A DNA stretch of 64,000 bases from Nitrospinota bacterium (GTDB taxonomy: Bacteria; Nitrospinota_A; UBA7883; JACRLM01), in contig JACQXA010000004.1 in assembly GCA_016208975.1 (NCBI GenBank), forward strand, positions 62,001 through 126,000. The letters are read 5' to 3'. Below the pieces are notes generated by a model. It was given only the letters and a program-made list of their open reading frames with translations. It was not told where the DNA came from and searched no databases. A program made the translations under genes and the position numbers. Below are positions 23,328 through 46,829 of this stretch, one piece after another (the stretch's first letter is position 1; each line of letters starts with the position of its first letter).

Positions 23328-25256
23328 ATGGCCGAAAAATCAGTCCATCTCATCATAGGCGCCGCCGGGCACATAGACCATGGCAAGACCAGCCTCATAA
23401 AAACCCTCACCGGCATAGACTGCGACCGGCTGGAGGAGGAAAAACGCCGGGGTATAACCATAGACCTGGGTTTTGCCATGCTACCCCTGCCCGATGGCCG
23501 CGTGGCCGGGATAGTGGACGCGCCGGGACATCAGCGGTTCGTCCACAACATGCTGGCCGGGGCCACGGGGATAGACATCGCCCTCATCGTAGTGGCCGCC
23601 GATGACGCGGTGATGCCCCAGACCATTGAGCACCTTTCGATAATGGAGCTGTTAAATATCAAACGGGGCGTGGTGGCCATTACCAAGGCGGACCTTGTGG
23701 ACGCAGAAACCCTGGAACTGGCGCGGGCCGATGTGGCGGGGCTTTTAGAAAGCTCATCCTTCGCCGGATCGAGAATAATCCCATGCTCCACGGTTACGGG
23801 GCTCGGTGTGGAAGAGATACGGCAGGAGTTGTTCCGGCTCGCCTCCGAGCCTTCGGAAAAGCCGGTGAACGCGTTTTTCCGGCTACCCATAGACCGCGTG
23901 TTTACGATAAAAGGACACGGCCTGGTGGTAACCGGCTCCGTATATAGCGGGTCGGCCTCGGCTGATGACTGGCTGGAGGTGATTCCCGGGAATATAAAGT
24001 CGCGGGTACGAAGGGTTCAAAGCCACGGGAAAACCGTTGAATCGGTAAGCGCGGGAACCCGGGCCGCCATAAACATAACCGGCCCGGAGAAAGACGACCT
24101 GAAACGGGGAATGGCGCTGTGCCACCCTGCCATCGCGGCCGGATACACCATTTTCAATGGTGAAATAACCTGTCACCGGCTCTCCCCCCTTCCCATCGTT
24201 CATGGCCGCTCGTATTTCCTTCACGTCCACACCGCCGAGACGTTGTGCAGGGTGTTCCTGGGGTGTGAGGCGCGGGAGCTGAAACCGGGTGAAAGGTGTT
24301 TTGGCCAGGTTAGGTTCGAAAAGCCAATCCACTTGCTCCATGGTGACCGGTTCGTGCTCCGTTCATCCTCGGCGATGGAGACGGTGGGTGGAGGAACGGT
24401 TCTGCTACCCGGTGGAAAACCGTTGGGAAAAAGGAAACTGGGCGGGATGAAAAGCCTGTGGGAATCCCTCGCCCGAAAAGATTCCGGCATGAGAGCCATG
24501 ATAGCCTCCACCAAAGGCGGGATGGGCGCCGGTGAGGTTGCGCGATTGTTCAACATTCCGCCAAAAGACATTCCCGGCGTCATCGGGAACACGCAGGGAA
24601 TCTCCAGCTTTGAATGGAAAGGCTCCACATGGTTTTATGATGACGCCGACGGAGAACGGATAGTTTCATCGGTGGTTTCCGCCGTAGAACGGTTCCATAA
24701 ACAAAACCCGGCCCTGCTGGGGATGGAGGAATCGCTGTTATACAAAACGGCGCTGGCTGGCATGGATGAATCGCTGGCGGCCTACTGGGTGCGCCGGGCG
24801 GCGCGGGATAAAAAGCTGGAGTTTGACGGCCCCTTGTTAAAGCTTGCGGGGCGTAGCGCCGTGTTCGAGGGGGAGAATGAAACGGCGCGGTTAAAATTCA
24901 CCGCAGTGTTTCAGGACGCTGGGCTTGCGCCTCCCAAGCCGGAGGCGGTCTTCGAAAAACTTGGGCTAAAAAAAAGCGAGGGCTCCAAGCTGTTAAAGTC
25001 CATCCTGCAACGGGGGGACATCGTTTCCGTGGCTCCGGATTTCATGCTGGCCGGCAACGTTTACAGTAACGCCAGGGAAAAACTTGTGGCCGAGCTTAAA
25101 CTGGAGGGGAAGGCGGATACGGCCCGGTACCGCGACATTCTGGGTTGCGGACGAAAGACCGCCATAGACCTGCTGGAGCATTTCGACAAGACCGGCCTTA
25201 CCAAACGGGTGGACAACAAGGGAACCAGGATTCTACTGACCTTGGAAAAAGGGTAG
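23328..25256 (+). CDS. selB: Selenocysteine-specific elongation factor SelB
   Basis: SelB carries Sec-tRNA to UGA codons marked by a SECIS hairpin. The 642-residue protein has the GTPase motifs GHIDHGKTSL, DAPGHQRF and TKAD, the SelB-specific start IIGAAGHIDHGKTSLIKTLT, and a long C-terminal region of winged-helix repeats ending CGRKTAIDLLEHFDKTGLTKR. selA, selC and any selenoprotein gene must lie elsewhere. The stop codon coincides with the left arm of an inverted-repeat element. Confidence 0.97.
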   Translation: MAEKSVHLIIGAAGHIDHGKTSLIKTLTGIDCDRLEEEKRRGITIDLGFAMLPLPDGRVAGIVDAPGHQRFVHNMLAGATGIDIALIVVAADDAVMPQTIEHLSIMELLNIKRGVVAITKADLVDAETLELARADVAGLLESSSFAGSRIIPCSTVTGLGVEEIRQELFRLASEPSEKPVNAFFRLPIDRVFTIKGHGLVVTGSVYSGSASADDWLEVIPGNIKSRVRRVQSHGKTVESVSAGTRAAINITGPEKDDLKRGMALCHPAIAAGYTIFNGEITCHRLSPLPIVHGRSYFLHVHTAETLCRVFLGCEARELKPGERCFGQVRFEKPIHLLHGDRFVLRSSSAMETVGGGTVLLPGGKPLGKRKLGGMKSLWESLARKDSGMRAMIASTKGGMGAGEVARLFNIPPKDIPGVIGNTQGISSFEWKGSTWFYDDADGERIVSSVVSAVERFHKQNPALLGMEESLLYKTALAGMDESLAAYWVRRAARDKKLEFDGPLLKLAGRSAVFEGENETARLKFTAVFQDAGLAPPKPEAVFEKLGLKKSEGSKLLKSILQRGDIVSVAPDFMLAGNVYSNAREKLVAELKLEGKADTARYRDILGCGRKTAIDLLEHFDKTGLTKRVDNKGTRILLTLEKG

Positions 25257-37187: not shown

Positions 37188-38123
37188 ATGAACGCCATGA
37201 TACTGGCCGCGGGATTGGGCACAAGGCTTCTGCCCCACACACTAAAAAGGCCCAAGCCATTGTTTCCAGTGCTGGAACGGGATCTATTGAGGATCGCCGT
37301 GGAGACGGTTTTGAAGCTGAACCCGCACAAGATTGTCATTAACGCCCATCATCTGGCCCCCATGATAGAAGAGCGGGTGGCAAAAATGGATTACGGGGTG
37401 GAGATCATCGTTTCGCGGGAAACAGAGATTCTCGGAACCGCCGGGGGTATCAAAAACGCCCAGCGTTGGCTGGATAGTGACAACTTCGCCGTTTTGAACT
37501 CCGACGTTATCATGGAGCCGGACTGGGCCAACCTGATGGCCGCCCATGAAAAATCCGGCGCAGTCGCCACGCTGGCCTTGCGTAAAAACCCAGACCCGGT
37601 GAAATACGGCCCATTGGCGGTAAACGGCCAGGGGCTTATCACCCGCTATCTTTCCGCCACGGGGCCGGGCCATGACGGCTCTGCCGGGCTTTTAATGTTC
37701 ACCGGTTGCTCCATTTTATCCCCATCCATTTTTCAGGGGATTCCCGCTGGCCGGGCTGTGGACATTTCCAAAGAGGTTTATATGCCCATGACCATGATGG
37801 GCGAGGGGCTATACGGCGTGGCGATGGAAACGCCCTGGACAGACGTGGGCACGGCGCAAGATTACCACAAGACCGTCATGGGCCTTCTTGACCGGAGAGA
37901 ATCATCCCGGGACGCCGGGATAAATATGGAGCCCGGCGCGCGGATAATACCCCCTGTTTATCTAGAGCCCGGAGCGCAAATAGGGGCCAATGCCATCATC
38001 GGCCCCAGCGCGGCCATTCACGCCGGGGCGGTTATAGGCGATGGCGCCCAGGTGAAAAACAGCGTTGTGTTGCCCGGCTCTTCTCTTCCATCCGGAGCAG
38101 TGGCTGATGGAGTAATCGTTTAA
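37188..38123 (+). CDS. Sugar-1-phosphate nucleotidyltransferase (MurU/ManC-like)
   Basis: The 311-residue protein has the NTP-transferase start MNAMILAAGLGTRLLPHT and KPKPLFPV-type motif, FAVLNSDVI and ETPWTDVGTAQDYH. A short left-handed beta-helix tail of hexapeptide repeats follows (IGANAIIGPSAAIHAGAVIG). It could make NDP-mannose, NDP-glucose or UDP-MurNAc. The 23-codon upstream extension is rejected because the fold begins at MNAM. It overlaps the convergent ABC permease gene by four bases. Confidence 0.88.
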   Translation: MNAMILAAGLGTRLLPHTLKRPKPLFPVLERDLLRIAVETVLKLNPHKIVINAHHLAPMIEERVAKMDYGVEIIVSRETEILGTAGGIKNAQRWLDSDNFAVLNSDVIMEPDWANLMAAHEKSGAVATLALRKNPDPVKYGPLAVNGQGLITRYLSATGPGHDGSAGLLMFTGCSILSPSIFQGIPAGRAVDISKEVYMPMTMMGEGLYGVAMETPWTDVGTAQDYHKTVMGLLDRRESSRDAGINMEPGARIIPPVYLEPGAQIGANAIIGPSAAIHAGAVIGDGAQVKNSVVLPGSSLPSGAVADGVIV

Positions 38124-38881
38124 ACGATAATCCGGCGGCGCACCAACCGCTCGGCCAGAACGCCGAACACCGCTGTGGCCGTAACCAGGAACAGCGCGGC
38201 CATTAAAAGCCCGTTGCCGTCGCCGCCATGGAAAAAGTGGCGGATAAGGTTCACCGAGTGGGTGGCGGGCATCGCCAGCGAAAGCCATTGCACCGCTGGC
38301 GGGAACGGGTCCAGCGGGAAGAACACCCCGGACAGAAAGAACATGGGGGCGATGAACAGCGTGAAGAAGTAATTGAAAAACTCGTAGCTTGGCGCCAGCG
38401 CCGAGAAACACATGGCCCCGCCGGCGAAAACCAGCCCCGTGAAAGCCACGGTCACCATTATCCCCACAATGGAAACCGATGGAGTGTATAACCCGAACAG
38501 GGTCATTATGAATATCATCACCGCGGCGGATATTACCGATTTTGTCATGCCCCACAATATCTCCCCCGCCACCAGGTCCTGCAAGGAAACCGGGGTGGAA
38601 ATGATGGATTCATAAGTGCGCTGGATGGTCATGCGGGTGTAGGAGCCGAAGGTACACTCAAACACGGCGCTGTACATGGACGAGGTGACAATCAAACCCG
38701 GCGCGATGAACTCCATGTACCGCATACCCTTGATGTCGGTGATATACGCCCCTATGCCGAACCCCATGGCGAAGAGGTACAGCAATGGCTCACCCAAGTT
38801 GCCCACGAGGCTGGGCTTGTAATATGAGCGGTACACCGCGAAATTGCGTAGCCACACATGAAACGCCCGGCGTGTCACCAT
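38120..38881 (-). CDS. ABC-2 type permease (NodJ-like)
   Basis: The 253-residue protein has six membrane helices and family features such as YLFAMGFGIGAYI, MRYMEFIAPGLI and SGVFFPLDPFPPAVQWL. It is typical of exporters of lipo-sugars or drugs. It pairs with the ATPase gene one base upstream. Confidence 0.9.
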   Translation of the reverse strand: MVTRRAFHVWLRNFAVYRSYYKPSLVGNLGEPLLYLFAMGFGIGAYITDIKGMRYMEFIAPGLIVTSSMYSAVFECTFGSYTRMTIQRTYESIISTPVSLQDLVAGEILWGMTKSVISAAVMIFIMTLFGLYTPSVSIVGIMVTVAFTGLVFAGGAMCFSALAPSYEFFNYFFTLFIAPMFFLSGVFFPLDPFPPAVQWLSLAMPATHSVNLIRHFFHGGDGNGLLMAALFLVTATAVFGVLAERLVRRRIIV

Positions 38882-38882
38882 T

Positions 38883-39800
38883 TCACATACCTCCCGGATG
38901 GCGCCCGGCGATTTTCATGAACAGGTCTTCCATGGAGGCGGGCCTTGTGGAGATAAGGCTGGCCTCCGCCAGTTCCGCAGGTATAGCGCCTGGCGCCGTC
39001 TTGAACACCAGGTAAACATCCCCGGCCCTGACAAAAGCCGCTCCCAGCCTTTTCAGGGATGGTTCCAGCTTGTCTTCCATGCCGGGCCGGGGGCGGGCCT
39101 CCACAACCGTCTCCCCCAAGTGGTCGCGCATGAGCGCATCCGGGGCTCCGGTGGCCATTATCTTGCCCATGTTCATGATCGCCAGCCGGTCGCAAAGCCT
39201 GCGGGCTTCTTCCATGTAATGGGTGGTGAGGATCATGGTCACCCCTTCGGCTTTCAGGTTTTCTATCTTGCGCCATATAACTATGCGCGCCTGTGGGTCT
39301 AACCCTGTGGTGGGCTCGTCGAGTATCAATAACTTCGGGTCGTTCACCAGCGCCCGGGCTATCACCAGCCGTCGGCGCATGCCGCCGGAAAGAACGCGGA
39401 TCTTCTCCGCCCGTTTTTCCTCCAGGTGGAAGAATTTTAGAAGCTCATCGGCTTTCCGTTCCGCCTGACGGCGGGGGATGTCAAAATAACCGGCGTAGAT
39501 CACCAGGTTCTGGAACACCGTAAGGTCCGGATCCAGGCTGTCTTCCTGGGGCGCCACACCGATGATGGATTTTATTTTGCGGTCGTCTTGCCCAGCCTCC
39601 ATCCCGTCCACCGTCACCCGGCCAGAGGTTAAAGGCGCAAGGCACTGGATCATTTTAAGCAGGGTGGTTTTTCCGGCCCCGTTGGGCCCAAGAAAGCCAA
39701 AACACTCCCCCCGCAGGATGGAAAACGACACCCCGTCCACGGCGGCGTAGGGGCCATACCGTTTCACCACATCCCCACCCGCCACCAGCGCGTCGGCCAT
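38883..39800 (-). CDS. ABC transporter ATPase (NodI-like)
   Basis: The 305-residue ATPase has Walker A GPNGAGKTT, signature LSGGMRRRL, Walker B LLILDEPTTGLD and the switch TTHYMEEA. It energises the adjacent permease. The substrate is unknown. Confidence 0.94.
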   Translation of the reverse strand: MADALVAGGDVVKRYGPYAAVDGVSFSILRGECFGFLGPNGAGKTTLLKMIQCLAPLTSGRVTVDGMEAGQDDRKIKSIIGVAPQEDSLDPDLTVFQNLVIYAGYFDIPRRQAERKADELLKFFHLEEKRAEKIRVLSGGMRRRLVIARALVNDPKLLILDEPTTGLDPQARIVIWRKIENLKAEGVTMILTTHYMEEARRLCDRLAIMNMGKIMATGAPDALMRDHLGETVVEARPRPGMEDKLEPSLKRLGAAFVRAGDVYLVFKTAPGAIPAELAEASLISTRPASMEDLFMKIAGRHPGGM

Positions 39801-39824
39801 GATCCGCTCTAAAACCGCGCTGGG

Positions 39825-40472
39825 CTATTTCTTCGGGACCTTTTCCCAGTCTTTCAGAAAACGCTCGATGCCGATGTCTGTAAGGGGGTGTTTGGCGAGC
39901 TGGCCGATAACGGAGAACGGCACCGTGGCCACGTCCGCCCCCATCCGGGCCGATTCCAGCGCATGAAGGGGGTTGCGTATGGAGGCCACAATCACCTCGG
40001 TGTCGTAACCGTAGTTGGTGAATATCTCCAGTATCTGGGCGACTATCTCCATGCCGTTGTGGGAAATGTCGTCCAGCCGGCCAACGAAGGGAGACACGTA
40101 GGTCGCCCCGGCCTTGGCCGCCAGCAGAGCCTGGTTGGCGGAAAACACCAGCGTGACGTTGGTCTTTATCCCCTCGCCGGAGAGTATCTTCACGGCTTTC
40201 AAGCCCTCGGTGGTCATGGGGATTTTCACAACCACGTTTTCGCTGATCTTGGCCAGTTCGCGCCCTTCAGCCACCATACCGTCTGCCTGCAACGAGATGA
40301 CCTCCAGGTTTATGGGGCCGTCCACCTCGGCCAATATCTCCCGGATCACGGTTTTAAAGTCCTTACCGGTCTTGGAGACAAGGCTTGGGTTGGTGGTAAC
40401 GCCATCGATGACCCCGAGGGAGTTGGCCTCGCGGATCTCGTTAATATCAGCGGAATCGATAAATAGCTTCAT
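39825..40472 (-). CDS. fsa: Fructose-6-phosphate aldolase / transaldolase-like protein
   Basis: The 215-residue protein is the short, FSA/TalC type: [26 protein letters not shown], the Schiff-base lysine in VVKIPMT, and [31 protein letters not shown]. It should cleave fructose 6-phosphate or act as transaldolase. AAGGAGA lies upstream of the ATG at 40472. Confidence 0.94.
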
Positions 40473-40594: not shown

Positions 40595-41500
40595 CTAGTT
40601 GAACTGGTTTTTGGGGCGGGAAAATAGCGTTACCCGGTCTCGCCCGGCGTTTTTGGACTGGTACAAGGCTGAATCAGCCGATTTTATTATCTCCTCCGCG
40701 TCGCACCCATCGGCCGGAAACTCTGAAATTCCTATGCTCACACGGGTTTTCAGCGGCTGGCCGCATGCCTGGCCCATAACCATTTCAGATATGGAGACCT
40801 TTAGCCTCTCCATGGCCGAAAAAGCGCTATCTTTTCCTGTTTCGGGCATGATTACGACAAACTCCTCCCCACCATACCGGGCCACCACGTCTATGTCCCT
40901 TACCGCTTCCTGGATGGCCTGGGTAACGCCGCGTAAAACTTCGTCCCCGGCCAGATGGCCGCAGGTGTCGTTGAGTTTCTTGAAATGGTCTATGTCCAGC
41001 ATGGCAACGGAAAACACCCGGTTAAACCTCTGGCTACGGTGTATCTCCATGGCCAGCCGGTTCTCCAGCGCCCGCCGGTTTAAGGCGCCGGTGAGATAGT
41101 CCGTGGAAGTGTCCCGCTTCAATTTGGCCACCTTGCCCAGGTTCACCCGGATGCGGGCCACCAGCTCTTCCACCTGGAAAGGCTTGGTTATATAATCGTC
41201 CCCCCCAAGCTTGAAACCCATAAGCTTGTCTTCGATGGAGGATTTGGCGGAAAGGAAAATGAACGGTATGCCAGCCCACCATCTCTCGGCCCGGATCTTT
41301 TGCAACAGCGAGAACCCGTCCATATCATTCATCATGATGTCGGAGATTATCAGGTCCGGCGTATGCTCATACATCCGGTCCACCGCTTCAAGGCCGCTGG
41401 CGGCGGTTATGACGGAATAACCCTCCTTAAGCAGGTGAAGCTCGATTAACTTGAGGGTAACGGCGGAGTCCTCCACCACAAGAATTTTTTCAACCGCCAT
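40595..41500 (-). CDS. Response regulator diguanylate cyclase (REC-GGDEF)
   Basis: The 301-residue protein has a receiver (LVVEDSAVTLK, LIISDIMMNDMDG, ITKPF) and a GGDEF domain with active-site YGGEEF and an inhibitory RxxD site just upstream (RDIDVVARYGGEEF). It should make cyclic di-GMP when phosphorylated, opposing the HD-GYP protein at 25.5 kb. The ATG at 41500 is used; TTG and GTG codons lie slightly upstream. Confidence 0.94.
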   Translation of the reverse strand: MAVEKILVVEDSAVTLKLIELHLLKEGYSVITAASGLEAVDRMYEHTPDLIISDIMMNDMDGFSLLQKIRAERWWAGIPFIFLSAKSSIEDKLMGFKLGGDDYITKPFQVEELVARIRVNLGKVAKLKRDTSTDYLTGALNRRALENRLAMEIHRSQRFNRVFSVAMLDIDHFKKLNDTCGHLAGDEVLRGVTQAIQEAVRDIDVVARYGGEEFVVIMPETGKDSAFSAMERLKVSISEMVMGQACGQPLKTRVSIGISEFPADGCDAEEIIKSADSALYQSKNAGRDRVTLFSRPKNQFN

Positions 41501-41625
41501 ATCAGCCACGGAAAGTATGGAATTCAAACCTAGCCCTTTTTAAGCAAGTCTGAATATTGGCTTAAAATAAATTATTAATCAAGTTAATATTTATGCCATT
41601 TAATTGCAACTTTTCGATACATTCC

Positions 41626-42570
41626 TCAAAGCGGTTCCATCTCCTTGAAATCCTTGCGGGCAGGCTTCCCTACGATGCTATCCAGCATATTGAGTGGCGT
41701 TACTTCCGGGCGGACAAGTTTTAACTTCTCCAGTGTCACTACATCCCCCTTGTTTATGGCGCAAGCGGCGTATATACCCCTGCGCATAAGGTGGACCTTG
41801 TTTGAGTCCGGCCGGTTTTGCGCTCCGGGTAGAGGAGCTTTTATGGCATTTTCCGCCTCTTTAATGGACTTTTTCAGCATGGAAAGCTCCTCTGGATTTG
41901 CGGAAATCTTGTGGTCGGGGCCGGGCAGGTTTTTATCTATGGTGAAATGTTTCTCTATTACCTCCGCCCCCAAGGCCACCGCCGCCGTGGCAACCGCCGT
42001 ACCCAAGGTATGGTCGGAAAAACCCACCCTAACGCCCATCTCTTTTTTCAACTCAGGAATCATACCCAGCATAGCCTCCTCCGGCATGGTGGGATAATTC
42101 GATACACAATGAAAAACGCATATTTCCGCCGCGCCGTTCTTCCGCAGGAGGGCCACGGCTTGCCGCGCCTCCTCCAGTTCTCCACCGCCGGTGGAAAGAT
42201 AAACTTTCCCTCCCTTCCGGGCCACGGCCGCAAGCAGAACCGGATTGTTCAGATCCATGGAGGCTATTTTGTATCCCGCCGGGTTCAGCTTCGAAAGCTC
42301 ATCCACCCAGTAAACGCTGAAGGGAGTTGAAAGAAAATCCACCCCATTGGAGTCTGCGGCGTTTTTTAACATACGGTGGGCATCGGGTGAAATTTCACCA
42401 GCCTTGAAGATGGGGTACAGCTCATGGTTGGGGAAATACAGGTCATCGGCGAAGAAGGACTGGAACTTAACCGCATCCGCGCCGGATCTGGCGGCGGACT
42501 CGATCATCCTCAACGCCAGGTCCAAGTCCCCGGAATGGGAGAAACCTATTTCAGCGATAAGGTAGGCCAT
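41626..42570 (-). CDS. NeuB-family sialic-acid-type synthase (SpsE-like)
   Basis: The 314-residue protein has the NeuB barrel (IAEIGFSHSGDLDLALRMI, SGADAVKFQSF, FLSTPF, KIASMDLNN, VYLSTGGGE, GFSDHTLGTAVATAAVALGAEVIEKHFT) and a C-terminal SAF domain (RRGIYAACAINKGDVV). The family joins phosphoenolpyruvate to an amino sugar, giving nonulosonic acids. No CMP-transferase is nearby. The ATG at 42570 is chosen because upstream codons overlap the preceding gene. Confidence 0.9.
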   Translation of the reverse strand: MAYLIAEIGFSHSGDLDLALRMIESAARSGADAVKFQSFFADDLYFPNHELYPIFKAGEISPDAHRMLKNAADSNGVDFLSTPFSVYWVDELSKLNPAGYKIASMDLNNPVLLAAVARKGGKVYLSTGGGELEEARQAVALLRKNGAAEICVFHCVSNYPTMPEEAMLGMIPELKKEMGVRVGFSDHTLGTAVATAAVALGAEVIEKHFTIDKNLPGPDHKISANPEELSMLKKSIKEAENAIKAPLPGAQNRPDSNKVHLMRRGIYAACAINKGDVVTLEKLKLVRPEVTPLNMLDSIVGKPARKDFKEMEPL

Positions 42571-42580
42571 AACTTGCTTT

Positions 42581-45193
42581 TCACCTGTTTTTTGGAGCTT
42601 CGTATGCCCCGGCGCCCCTGCCGTCGGAAATGAACAGCGCACCCCGGTCTTCATTGTAAAAAATCACCGGTTCTCCATCGAAATCGGCTATTTCAGCGAC
42701 CTTTATCCTGGTGAATGGGTGATCCAGGGTGATGAGCCTTGTTTTCACCCAATCTCCCTGTACGCTGGACGTGGCGGCCAGATGATACCCCTCCTGGTCC
42801 TCCCAAAGCAGTTTCACCCTGTCCAGACGGGGGATGCCGTAAAACTCCCCTAGCGTCCTGCCCCGGGCGTTGTCCACCACCATGAGTTTCCTTTCCGCCG
42901 GGCAGGTTAACGCGGGCATTTTCCCTATCATTCCCGCGCAAACGCACCCCTCAGGATATTTGAACGCCATGGCCCCGGTGGTTTTGTCCACCGCCGCCTG
43001 CCGGGCGAATAAGGTATTCCCCCCATAGGTTTCTTCAGTGGCGAAACTCAACGGCTCTTCATATTTCCACACCGCCGCGCCGGTGGAGGGGATCAGCGTC
43101 ATGGAGTTGAACCTGCCGGAAAAAAGGTAAGCCCCCTCCGCCCCCGGCGCCACGGGTTTTAATCCCGCCGCCCGGGACAACGGCGCGCCATCCCTCTGGC
43201 TTATCACCCGTGAGCCATGGCCAGTAACCGAAATTATCAGCGTGTCTCTGGCGGTGGTGATAGCGGTAATCCGCCCATCCGCCGGAACGCTCCACATTTT
43301 CTTGCCGGCCTTATCGAAGGCCGTTACCTGATCGCCGCCAGCCACGGCCAGTCCGTTAGGCGTAAAAGCCCATGCCGTGGCCGGGTAGCCGGGAAGCTTG
43401 GCCGTCCACGCCAGGGAACCGTTCTTCCAGGAAACAGCCCCTATAAAACCGGAGCCGTCCTTTTTGCCGATGACAAAATATAGGCTGGAGCCTGGATCCG
43501 CCAGTATCCTCTCAACCCCCTGGGCGGCGGATATCCACAACGGTTTGCCTGTGGCGACATCAAAGGCCGTCAGTTCCCCTCCAATCAATACGGCGGCCAT
43601 GTTGGGCCCGTTGAGCGTGGCTACGCTATCCGCCTTAACGCGCCATTTGGCCGGAAGTGAAACATACCCCGGCGCCGTCACACCCCCCAAAGCCGTGGCG
43701 GCCACCCGCAACGCCTCCCCTTTCAACTGATACCCGGCCAGCGACAACATGCCAGCCATAACAATCAGGGAGGCGGCTCCGATTTTCTCTTTTTGCCCCC
43801 CGTTCAGCGTAACCACCAGCGTTCCCGCCAGCCTGTCATGTACGCCGCGCCGCAGAGGGTCTTTAAACGCCGCGAGGTAGCCTATGAACGGGAATAAAGC
43901 TACTAGTGAAAGCAACAGGTATCCTGTCCGCGCCAAAGACGAGGCTGGCTTTGGCGGCTCCCCGCTCTCCGAATCCACCACAGCCACGCCGCACAAACGC
44001 TGAATTGGTGTCGCTCCCCATTTCGTTACCGGGTAATAAAAATAGCCGATGAACAAGACCGACGCCATGGTGGAGTAAACAATCTTTGAGGCTGGATACG
44101 CTTCCCACGGAAACAGGACGGTGAGAAGCGCGGCGAACATTAGGAACTCGAAAACCTTGATGGATCCCCGCAGGGCCAAACCTGCGGGCATAAGCCCTTC
44201 CGCCGGGGAATCTAGCGATGGTGTTTCCCCCGCTTTGGCCTCTTTGGGCAGGCATTCGGGGCAATAAACCCTCCCGTCGAACCGGTTATGGCAGGAAAGG
44301 CATACCGCTTTGGCGCATGCCGCGCAAACTGCCACCGCCGGAGTGTCTTTATGATTCTCGCAGACCGGAGCCGAAGGGACTATCAACGCCTCGTCCTTTT
44401 TCATCTCGCGGATTTTGAGCAGAATCTTGTTTTTCACAGCCAGGTCGAACCGGCGCTCATGGATGTCCGCCATGCGCGCCACGAAATCTTTCATGGAGAA
44501 TTTCATTAAAGACCGGTCTTGCCCCGCTGTTTTATAATCGGCGGCGGCCAATAGCTCCTCCACGGGCGCGCCGGGGAAAAACTGCGCCTCGCCCATGGGG
44601 TCGGCCAATATCCACGGAGAATGGTTCGAGGCTATCGCGAACTTCTCGCCGGTTTCCCCCATGGGGGCTATCACCATTATCTCCGCCCGCTCCGATGGCG
44701 GCTCGAAAAGCGCCAAGGCGTATAATTTTCGTTCTTTGTTGGCGAAAAGCCGCTCGAACCGGCGAGGTATCAACGAATCAACCACCCGGTCCATCACGGG
44801 GATGAACCCATGGCCCCGCAAGGATGAAGTGACCCCGTTAAGCAGTTTCTTATCAATCTCCGGAGCCTTTGGAAGGCTGGTTCTGGAGTATTTCAACAAC
44901 CGTCCTTTGAACGCGGGCTTTACCAGCGGCCGCCTGGTGGCGCGGCCGATGAACCATCCCGCGGCCAGGGACGCGGCGGCGGTGGCCCGGCCCCAGCCCG
45001 TTTTATCCCCGGTTTCCGCGAGGATAACATCTTTTAACTGGAAAGCGTTGAGGTTTACGCCGAACAGCTTGTTGTCGTATGGATCTTCCCGCCGTTCCTT
45101 CACTACTGTTCCGCAGGCGGAGCATTTAGCGCCAAGGACGCCTTCCGGATCCATTAATCCGCACCGGACGCAAACAATCCCCTGCCCCGTCAT
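42581..45193 (-). CDS. Zinc-ribbon / RDD membrane / PQQ-propeller multidomain protein
   Basis: This 870-residue protein is a mosaic. Residues 8-27 form a zinc ribbon (CVRC, CSAC). After a soluble region of about 200 residues comes a B-box-like cysteine cluster at 278-314 (CENH, CAAC, CLSC, CPEC). An RDD-type membrane module follows at about 345-465 (QRLCGVAVVD, then DPLRRGVHDRLAG). From about 470 there is another helix and then a long beta-propeller of PQQ-like repeats to the end. The start ATG at 45193 overlaps the preceding gene stop (ATGA), so translation is coupled. The propeller would be periplasmic and the ribbons cytoplasmic. Function is unknown. Confidence 0.88.
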   Translation of the reverse strand: MTGQGIVCVRCGLMDPEGVLGAKCSACGTVVKERREDPYDNKLFGVNLNAFQLKDVILAETGDKTGWGRATAAASLAAGWFIGRATRRPLVKPAFKGRLLKYSRTSLPKAPEIDKKLLNGVTSSLRGHGFIPVMDRVVDSLIPRRFERLFANKERKLYALALFEPPSERAEIMVIAPMGETGEKFAIASNHSPWILADPMGEAQFFPGAPVEELLAAADYKTAGQDRSLMKFSMKDFVARMADIHERRFDLAVKNKILLKIREMKKDEALIVPSAPVCENHKDTPAVAVCAACAKAVCLSCHNRFDGRVYCPECLPKEAKAGETPSLDSPAEGLMPAGLALRGSIKVFEFLMFAALLTVLFPWEAYPASKIVYSTMASVLFIGYFYYPVTKWGATPIQRLCGVAVVDSESGEPPKPASSLARTGYLLLSLVALFPFIGYLAAFKDPLRRGVHDRLAGTLVVTLNGGQKEKIGAASLIVMAGMLSLAGYQLKGEALRVAATALGGVTAPGYVSLPAKWRVKADSVATLNGPNMAAVLIGGELTAFDVATGKPLWISAAQGVERILADPGSSLYFVIGKKDGSGFIGAVSWKNGSLAWTAKLPGYPATAWAFTPNGLAVAGGDQVTAFDKAGKKMWSVPADGRITAITTARDTLIISVTGHGSRVISQRDGAPLSRAAGLKPVAPGAEGAYLFSGRFNSMTLIPSTGAAVWKYEEPLSFATEETYGGNTLFARQAAVDKTTGAMAFKYPEGCVCAGMIGKMPALTCPAERKLMVVDNARGRTLGEFYGIPRLDRVKLLWEDQEGYHLAATSSVQGDWVKTRLITLDHPFTRIKVAEIADFDGEPVIFYNEDRGALFISDGRGAGAYEAPKNR

Positions 45194-46686
45194 AGCGCCG
45201 CTCCGGACACGAAATAATAAAACGACAGGGCCACATAAGCCGGATACAAGAACAAAGGAGCAAATCCTGTGGCCACCGCCACCGCCAACGCCAGAACGCC
45301 CCCTAACGTGGCTTTTCGCTCCACCCGGGGGGTAAGAAGCCGGGGCGCGGCGGCTTTTAATATCCACCAACCGTCCAGGGGGGGGAAGGGAAGCAGGTTG
45401 AAGGCCCCCACCAGAAGGTTTATAACCGCGCCCAGGGCCGTAAGCTCCAACGCGACGAACCAGAAAGGCTCCAGGTATCCGGCCCCGGCTTTGATCGGGT
45501 CGGAAAGAGCGGCGGTGAACCACACATGGCTTTCAGGGTGGATGGAGTTATGGGCCGCCGCCAGGACCATAAACAGGATGAACATGGCGTAAGAGACCAT
45601 AAAACTTGTGAACGGCCCCATACCCGCCGTTAACACCGCTCCCAAAGGCTGGCGTTTCATGTTAACCGGGTTAAAGGGAGCGGATTTCGCCCAGCCGAAC
45701 ACCACACCCCCGGCAAGATATGCAAATAGCGGGACAACCGCGCTACCTATCGTGGAGAAATGGCTCAAAGGGTTCAACGTCACCCTGCCGGATTTCAATG
45801 CGGTGTCGTCCCCCAGAAATAGGGCGCACACTCCATGCCCCAGTTCGTGAAGGCTCAACGCCAGCCAAACCGTATAGAAAAGCGAAAGGTACAGAAGCCA
45901 CGGGGTTGCCGCCGAGTCCGGCCCGGCCACCCCCCTTATCGCTATAAGAAACAGTGGGAACGCAACCCACCCGGACGCGTAGATTTTCGTTTTCCGCCCG
46001 GCGGCCCCAATCAATCCGGTGATGATCTCGATGGGAGATGTCGTTTCCACCTGCGCCTCATGGGCGCGTTTCATGGCCGCTACGCTTTCTTCGAGCCGCT
46101 TGTTGTCTTCGGCGATCTTGAGCATAAGCGCGGCCTGCGCGTTTCCTGGCTCCAGCTCAATGAGCTTCTTCAAAAACCCTTCCCCCTGGGCGTACCGTTT
46201 ACGCTGTATATGGAGCATGGAGGCCTTTAACAGGGATTCCCTGTGGGACGGGTCTATCTCCAGTATTTTTGTATAGGCCGCCAGAGCCTCGTATAAAAGG
46301 TTTTGTCTGGAGCAGGCGGTAGCCAAAGCCTGGAGGATATCAATGTTCCGCGGGACTTTATCCGAAGCGGCCCGGAATTTTATGACGGCGGCAGGATATT
46401 TCTTATCGTTAAAAAGCGCGGCTCCTTCAATGAGAAGTTCCTTGGCCTGTAAATTCGCTTCCCTTTCATCGCCGGCTCCGGCCTTTAATTCAACCTTGGG
46501 AGAGGCGCCAACGGCCTTGCTATCCTTTTGTGGAGCCCCTATTGTTCCGGCGGCCGGCTGTGGAGGGAATATCAAAGAGTTGCCGCATTTGACGCAACGG
46601 GCCCTAATTGAACCATCCGGAGACTTCACGCCGCCGGAGAAGCTCTTGCTTCCGCAATAAGGGCACTTGCTTTCTGACCCCGCCAA
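45190..46686 (-). CDS. Zinc-ribbon / TPR / site-2 protease (M50) fusion
   Basis: The 498-residue protein has a zinc ribbon at 8-34 (CPYC, CVKC), a linker, about three TPR repeats at 80-200, and an M50 membrane protease domain from about 235. The protease has HELGH at 280-284 and the second metal motif NLLPFPPLDGWW at 430-441, so it should be active. Site-2 proteases cut membrane-bound regulators. An attached ribbon and TPR is an unusual front end. The start is TTG at 46686 with AAGTGG before it; no ATG is available. It is the first gene of a coupled pair. Confidence 0.9.
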   Translation of the reverse strand: MAGSESKCPYCGSKSFSGGVKSPDGSIRARCVKCGNSLIFPPQPAAGTIGAPQKDSKAVGASPKVELKAGAGDEREANLQAKELLIEGAALFNDKKYPAAVIKFRAASDKVPRNIDILQALATACSRQNLLYEALAAYTKILEIDPSHRESLLKASMLHIQRKRYAQGEGFLKKLIELEPGNAQAALMLKIAEDNKRLEESVAAMKRAHEAQVETTSPIEIITGLIGAAGRKTKIYASGWVAFPLFLIAIRGVAGPDSAATPWLLYLSLFYTVWLALSLHELGHGVCALFLGDDTALKSGRVTLNPLSHFSTIGSAVVPLFAYLAGGVVFGWAKSAPFNPVNMKRQPLGAVLTAGMGPFTSFMVSYAMFILFMVLAAAHNSIHPESHVWFTAALSDPIKAGAGYLEPFWFVALELTALGAVINLLVGAFNLLPFPPLDGWWILKAAAPRLLTPRVERKATLGGVLALAVAVATGFAPLFLYPAYVALSFYYFVSGAAL

Positions 46687-46770: not shown

Positions 46771-46804
46771 CAAAAAAACCGGGCCGTCTAAAAAGACGGC
46801 CCGG
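46771..46804 (-). terminator. Strong intrinsic terminator of the ribosomal protein/rpoA cluster
   Basis: On the minus strand CCGGGCCGTCT and AGACGGCCCGG form an 11-bp stem with a 4-base loop, followed by seven T. It lies about 25 bases after the rplQ stop. Confidence 0.92.
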
Positions 46805-46829
46805 CGCGTTATGGCGTGGGGAAAACCCC

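What the first reader, a model, noticed from the sequence alone, without database searches (positions are those of the whole stretch)
41626..46686. Zinc-ribbon/TPR/site-2 protease coupled to a zinc-ribbon/RDD/PQQ-propeller membrane protein and a NeuB-type synthase
Two large mosaic membrane proteins share a start-stop overlap, so they are made together. One is an apparently complete M50 protease (HELGH plus NLLPFPPLDG) fused to a zinc ribbon and TPRs. The other has two cysteine clusters, an RDD membrane module and a long beta-propeller that would face the periplasm. Both begin with a CxxC...CxxC ribbon. The NeuB-like gene follows 10 bases later. A possible reading is a sensing device: the propeller detects an envelope or glycan state and the protease cuts a partner. 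No standard system has this set of domains that I know of.
Basis: partly seen in the sequence, partly recalled or inferred. Interest (0 to 1): 0.7.

Follow-up and report, generated by a model that had tools for sequence, protein, structure and literature searches.

The report
Membrane protease with dedicated propeller-bearing partner
Two neighbouring genes in a little-studied bacterial phylum make an unusual membrane-cutting enzyme and a membrane partner carrying a propeller-shaped domain; the two always travel together, probably as an undescribed envelope-sensing protease, while the sugar-synthesis gene beside them is only a neighbour.

Summary
A (45190-46686, minus) is a zinc ribbon-TPR-M50 site-2 protease with intact HELGH and LDG motifs. 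B (42581-45193), overlapping it by ATGA, is a zinc ribbon, a domain of unknown fold, a B-box-like zinc finger, RDD, one more TM helix and a BamB-like propeller. NeuB follows 10 bases later.

The genome is Nitrospinota. A homology scan of 84,980 species with B found only three other loci, all relatives in the same order. Profiles over 385 genomes found ribbon-TPR-M50 in five genomes, all of that order. Wherever both sides of A are assembled (4 genomes, 3 families), B is the next gene, in several chromosomal contexts. A is one well-supported clade (100/99).

NeuB is not part of the system. In G001 A-B sits beside acpS and dnaX while NeuB is elsewhere. In G009 rplQ-NfeD-NeuB-talC is intact without A-B. 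In G003 and G005 an opposite-strand NfeD gene separates NeuB from B.

Best mechanism, inferred: a PDZ-less S2P gated by a dedicated membrane partner whose propeller faces the periplasm (the only cysteines shared by all four propellers are one pair, C750/C764). Works-like analogue: SpoIVFB with BofA/SpoIVFA. Substrate and signal are unknown.

The parts
45190..46686 (-). Protein A: zinc ribbon - TPR - M50 site-2 protease, 498 aa, TTG start
46585..46665 (-). A zinc ribbon C8xxC11...C31xxC34, all four Cys invariant in five homologues
46072..46449 (-). A tetratricopeptide repeats (about residues 80-205)
   Evidence: Pfam TPR_2, TPR_19, TPR_14 over cut-off
45295..45870 (-). A M50 catalytic domain (residues 273-464)
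   Evidence: Pfam PF02163, 46 bits
45835..45849 (-). HELGH zinc-binding/catalytic motif (280-284)
45370..45399 (-). NLLPFPPLDG motif (430-439), third zinc ligand
45190..45193 (-). ATGA overlap: stop of A and start of B
42581..45193 (-). Protein B: zinc ribbon - unknown domain - B-box-like - RDD - TM - propeller, 870 aa
45113..45172 (-). B N-terminal zinc ribbon C8xxC11...C24xxC27 (absent from the G005 homologue)
44414..45076 (-). B domain of unknown fold (about 40-260), no PDB fold match with E below 0.25; absent from the G005 homologue
44252..44362 (-). B-box-like zinc cluster, eight invariant ligands C278 H281 C290 C293 C298 C301 C311 C314
43808..44188 (-). RDD membrane module (336-462); R342 and D453 invariant, first Asp replaced by invariant E349
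43727..43795 (-). Additional TM helix (467-489) that leads into the propeller
42596..43654 (-). BamB-like beta-propeller (514-866), about seven blades, pLDDT mostly 75-91 apart from a weaker stretch
42902..42946 (-). Cys pair C750/C764, the only cysteines shared by all four propellers (C752 in two)
46778..46805 (-). Intrinsic terminator between rplQ and A, 12-bp stem
41626..42570 (-). NeuB-like synthase: adjacent here but judged not part of the A-B system

Best explanation
A and B are two subunits of one regulated intramembrane protease. A is a PDZ-less site-2 protease whose zinc ribbon and TPRs lie in the cytoplasm and recruit a substrate or effector. B is its dedicated membrane partner: the B-box-like finger (and usually the N-terminal ribbon and unknown domain) in the cytoplasm, the RDD module packing in the membrane, and a BamB-like propeller in the periplasm that detects an envelope state and gates access of a membrane substrate to A. 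Shown: the sequence features, co-inheritance, start-stop overlap and catalytic motifs. Inferred: the physical complex, the gating, the direction of signalling. Unknown: substrate and signal. NeuB is a chromosomal neighbour.
For: In all four genomes where both sides of A are assembled (G000, G001, G003, G005; three families), B follows A directly on the same strand: ATGA overlap in the window, start codon of B within the stop of A in G001, a 4-base gap in G003, about 100 bases in G005. The contexts differ: after the spc operon (window, G005), beside acpS/dnaX (G001), beside a TPR gene and NTP-transferase/YchF (G003). Neither was found without the other in 385 genomes, except in G004, where A is cut by a contig end. 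A is one clade, 100/99, on a long stem, with HExxH and LDG intact. The genome also has RseP and a standalone YwhC-like S2P, so A is not the housekeeping enzyme. Periplasmic propeller: the only cysteines shared by all four propellers are the invariant pair C750/C764; the loop before the last TM is net positive in three of four; best folds are BamB (E 8e-16). PDZ-less SpoIVFB is controlled by two membrane proteins that complex with it and needs no site-1 protease (PMC10202637).
Against: No complex was modelled. The RDD part of the model is low confidence (pLDDT mostly 50 or below), so the topology is not settled: a plain count of four TM helices from a cytoplasmic N-terminus would put the propeller in the cytoplasm. 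No substrate, anti-sigma factor or transcription regulator is linked to the pair. B-box-RDD proteins elsewhere (G162, G250, G041) have no S2P beside them. Only four complete pairs exist in these data. All four A proteins carry GPxxS where the standalone relatives carry GPxxN, with unknown effect on activity.
Confidence: 0.45

Rival explanations
1. Constitutive quality control: A removes leftover or misassembled membrane segments, and B (BamB-like propeller plus zinc fingers) is a substrate-catching adaptor for envelope proteins, without a signalling output.
For: The propeller is closest to BamB, an assembly factor of outer-membrane proteins. TPRs commonly recruit clients. No sigma or anti-sigma gene was recognised next to the pair in any of the four genomes.
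Against: Absence from most genera of the order and from the rest of the phylum argues against a core quality-control job. Genomes with and without B both lack a BamB over the NCBIfam cut-off, so B does not look like a BamB replacement.
Confidence: 0.28
2. A-B and NeuB form one envelope-glycan system: the propeller reads a glycan state and the protease controls production or export of the nonulosonate-type sugar made by NeuB.
For: NeuB starts 10 bases after B in the window. NeuB orthologues of 57-65% identity lie within a few kb of B in G003 and G005. An ABC-2 exporter and an NTP-transferase lie nearby.
Against: In G001, of the same family, B is followed by about 420 bases without NeuB, and NeuB sits elsewhere next to toxin-antitoxin-like genes and tpx. 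G009 keeps rplQ-NfeD-NeuB-talC with no A-B. G002 has NeuB and no detected A-B, although its contig is cut just upstream. In G003 and G005 an NfeD gene of opposite strand lies between B and NeuB.
Confidence: 0.07
3. RDD transporter with proteolytic control: B is primarily an ion or lipid carrier (RDD antiporter-like) whose stability A controls by cleaving it.
For: One RDD protein has Na+(Li+,K+)/H+ antiport activity (PMC5996927), and RDD is proposed to hold a membrane binding site facing the cytoplasm (PMC12419801). Here R342 and D453 are invariant and the first Asp is an invariant Glu.
Against: B is a substrate candidate only by proximity. The RDD module is a small part of an 870-residue protein, and transport does not explain a conserved propeller and zinc cluster.
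Confidence: 0.12
4. No functional link: two lineage-specific membrane proteins that happen to stay adjacent.
For: Only four complete pairs are known, all in one order, and three of them share parts of the same chromosomal neighbourhood.
Against: Adjacency and order survive a change of chromosomal context in G001, with the start of B kept inside the stop of A, while other neighbours (NeuB, rplQ) did not move with them.
Confidence: 0.08

Closest known systems
SpoIVFB with BofA/SpoIVFA (Bacillus subtilis PDZ-less site-2 protease with membrane partners)
   Same: PDZ-less S2P controlled by membrane partner proteins rather than by a site-1 cut of the substrate (PMC10202637)
   Different: BofA and SpoIVFA are not RDD or propeller proteins (own knowledge); A has no CBS domain and carries a ribbon and TPRs instead; substrate unknown here
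Standalone YwhC-like M50 proteases (nearest sequence relatives of A; mostly 220-290 aa)
   Same: Same M50 core with HExxH, NPxxH and DG motifs
   Different: No ribbon or TPR region aligned, no B partner; GPxxN instead of GPxxS; A is a separate long-stemmed clade
RseP/RasP group I site-2 proteases
   Same: M50 catalytic chemistry
   Different: A has no PDZ domain; a separate RseP is present in the same genome
BamB (YfgL)
   Same: Closest propeller by sequence and by fold
   Different: BamB is an outer-membrane lipoprotein without RDD, zinc fingers or TM helices (own knowledge); B scores 23 bits against the 285-bit BamB cut-off
B-box/zinc-ribbon RDD proteins and VanZ-RDD signalling fusions
   Same: A cytoplasmic zinc finger next to RDD recurs elsewhere (G041, G162, G250); RDD is fused to signalling parts (PMC12419801)
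   Different: None of those examined carries a propeller or has a site-2 protease beside it

Membership tests
M50 site-2 protease | Pfam PF02163 above gathering score | tested here: met
   46 bits against 27.2; three homologues also above
M50 site-2 protease | HExxH and LDG zinc motifs in separate TM segments | tested here: met
   HELGH 280-284, LDG 437-439, present in all four complete A proteins; hydrophobic segments around both
M50 site-2 protease | GPxxN motif of the nearest relatives (not a zinc ligand; not a defining feature of M50 as a whole) | tested here: not met
   GPxxS in all four A proteins, N in all standalone relatives read
M50 site-2 protease | Proteolytic activity | not testable with these tools
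   needs biochemistry
RseP group I | PDZ domain | tested here: not met
   no PDZ hit in Pfam
SpoIVFB-type group III | CBS domain | tested here: not met
   no CBS hit; the comparison is works-like only
RDD family (PF06271) | Pfam score above cut-off | tested here: met
   48.2 bits against 24.1; homologues 36-53 bits
RDD family (PF06271) | Conserved Arg, Asp, Asp | tested here: inconclusive
   R342 and D453 invariant; the first Asp is replaced by invariant Glu349
BamB | NCBIfam TIGR03300 cut-off | tested here: not met
   23 bits against 285
B-box zinc finger | Pfam zf-B_box score and eight ligands | tested here: inconclusive
   17.8 bits, below 24.1, but all eight ligands invariant
NeuB/PseI synthase (41626-42570) | NCBIfam equivalog cut-offs | tested here: not met
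   277.5 of 399.65 (NeuB) and 245.3 of 340.25 (PseI); PF03102 met with 243 bits; sugar product unassigned
Known anti-phage defence systems (PADLOC) | model match | tested here: not met
   no match for A, B or NeuB

The most novel reading that the evidence does not exclude
A and B are an undescribed class of transmembrane sensor-protease: a site-2 protease that dispenses with PDZ domains and a site-1 protease and is switched by a dedicated RDD-propeller receptor, so that RDD acts as a signalling coupler between a periplasmic ligand and intramembrane proteolysis.
Probability: 0.25. Interest if true: 0.75.

Novelty: new variant of a known kind. Interest (0 to 1): 0.46.

Why it matters
A review states that two of the four site-2 protease subgroups carry no extra domains (PMC10202637), and the role of RDD is called unknown in recent work (PMC12419801). 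A fixed pair that couples an S2P to an RDD-propeller protein gives both open questions one compact, testable object. It would also be a way to control intramembrane proteolysis with a receptor subunit instead of PDZ domains and a site-1 cut.

Tried and rejected
NeuB as a third member: rejected by G001 and G009. NfeD protease as an alternative partner: it adjoins the pair only in G003 and G005 and stays in place without the pair in G009; in the window genome NfeD is about 250 kb away. B as a BamB replacement: no correlation, since no class member has a BamB over cut-off. Phage or defence origin: no PADLOC match, and a scan of viral contigs with A found no relative. Fold of B residues 40-260: no PDB match with E below 0.25. 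RDD topology from the model: low confidence there, and no solved RDD relative found. B-box-RDD genes elsewhere beside an S2P: not seen in the loci examined. RNA elements near the pair: none at gathering score. Papers with this architecture: none found.

Full report
1. What is there. The window has three consecutive minus-strand genes after the spc ribosomal operon. A (45190-46686) reads ribbon-TPR-M50; B (42581-45193) reads ribbon - unknown domain - B-box-like finger - RDD - TM - propeller; NeuB (41626-42570) follows. A's stop and B's start overlap as ATGA. Pfam puts M50, several TPRs, RDD and PQQ_2/BamB over their cut-offs; the B-box match is below its cut-off, yet all eight ligands are invariant in the four homologues. 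An intrinsic terminator with a 12-bp stem (46778-46805) lies between rplQ and A, and its stretch folds 3.8 sd better than shuffles, so I infer that A-B-NeuB is transcribed apart from the ribosomal operon in this genome; no promoter was identified.

2. Where it occurs. The window genome is a 2.97-Mb assembly in four contigs, 100% complete. That scan used two short patterns and could miss distant relatives. Profile searches of 385 genomes, including 23 of the same class, agree: B only in G000, G001, G003 and G005; ribbon-TPR-M50 only there and, cut by a contig end, in G004. The other M50 hits listed align only over the catalytic part. G005's B lacks the N-terminal ribbon and unknown domain, so the constant core of B is finger-RDD-TM-propeller.

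3. The pair is inseparable in these data, NeuB is not. In all four genomes B follows A on the same strand (ATGA overlap; start codon within the stop of A in G001; 4-base gap in G003; about 100 bases in G005). In the window and G005 the pair lies behind the spc operon; in G003 beside a TPR gene, an NTP-transferase and YchF; in G001 beside acpS and dnaX. NeuB belongs to an orthologue group at 57-65% identity in G000, G001, G002, G003, G005 and G009, against 38% or less for most other NeuB-like genes. In G001 it is on another contig with 1.4 kb upstream that holds no B, while the 420 bases after B hold no NeuB. G009 has an unbroken rplQ-NfeD-NeuB-talC order without A-B (its NeuB reads as two frames). 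In G003 and G005 an opposite-strand NfeD gene sits between B and NeuB. NeuB adjacency is therefore best read as inherited gene order, tightened to 10 bases here.

4. The protease. A keeps HExxH and the LDG motif. All four complete A proteins have GPxxS where the standalone relatives read have GPxxN. In a tree of 42 M50 cores A is one clade (100/99) on a stem of 2.63 changes per site; its deeper placement is unsure because long branches meet. The same genome has a separate RseP and a separate YwhC-like S2P.

5. The partner. AlphaFold2 with four sequences gives a propeller of about 30 strands at pLDDT mostly 75-91, with a weaker stretch near model residues 360-410; BamB is the best PDB match by fold (E 8e-16) and by sequence. 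The RDD part is low confidence. Topology rests on three points: (i) the only cysteines shared by the four propellers are C750 and C764, invariant, with C752 added in two of them, as expected for a disulfide in an oxidising compartment; (ii) the loop before the last TM carries more Lys/Arg than Asp/Glu in three of four and equal numbers in G005; (iii) zinc ribbon and B-box-like finger, expected in the cytoplasm, precede the first TM. A cytoplasmic propeller is not excluded, because a simple count of four TM helices would give it; a periplasmic one requires the third RDD segment, which has an invariant Pro435 in its middle, to re-enter rather than cross. The RDD Arg and last Asp are invariant; the first Asp is an invariant Glu. 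B-box-RDD proteins without propeller exist in other phyla.

6. Mechanism. Established: PDZ-less SpoIVFB is held by BofA and SpoIVFA and needs no site-1 cut (PMC10202637). One RDD protein shows cation/proton antiport (PMC5996927), and RDD has been proposed to hold a cytoplasm-facing membrane site and is fused to signalling domains (PMC12419801). From these and the co-inheritance I infer that B gates A: propeller as periplasmic detector, RDD/TM as membrane contact, zinc fingers and TPRs as cytoplasmic docking. Shown: architecture, motifs, co-inheritance, overlap. Not shown: complex, signal, substrate.

7. Verdict. A real, lineage-restricted two-gene module with no described counterpart in the libraries and papers searched; a new variant of a PDZ-less S2P with a dedicated partner. 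The NeuB part of the reading fails.

Noticed in passing
L002 354-1770 (G000:C3); L082 824-2475 (G002); L014 46-1920 (G058): A second, more widespread ribbon-RDD pair: a protein with an N-terminal ribbon (MRCPYCSYVSFEFLDTCKKCSKDL) and a long acidic tail lies directly upstream of a small RDD protein, and in G058 (another phylum) ribbon and RDD are one protein. The ribbon was found in 22 of 97 genomes; in at least ten its match lies about 1.0-1.5 kb from the RDD match.
   Followed up: partly
41626-42570: The NeuB group (57-65% identical in six genomes) is below both the NeuB and PseI equivalog cut-offs; its sugar product is unassigned.
   Followed up: partly
40595-41527: A response regulator-GGDEF gene follows NeuB on the same strand after about 100 bases.
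   Followed up: no
38120-40472: ABC-2 exporter pair and a transaldolase-like gene stay together in order in G002 and G003.
   Followed up: no
L079 97-1305 (G001:C60): NeuB in G001 is preceded by genes resembling RelE/RelB-type toxin-antitoxin modules (by eye) and followed by tpx.
   Followed up: no
L077 8480-9514 (G005): A MauG/di-haem cytochrome c peroxidase gene sits between rplQ and A in G005.
   Followed up: no
23328-25256: A SelB-like elongation factor, suggesting selenocysteine use; judged by eye from its N-terminus only.
   Followed up: no
L081 4927-5945 (G009): The NeuB orthologue of G009 reads as two overlapping frames, a possible frameshift or assembly error.
   Followed up: no
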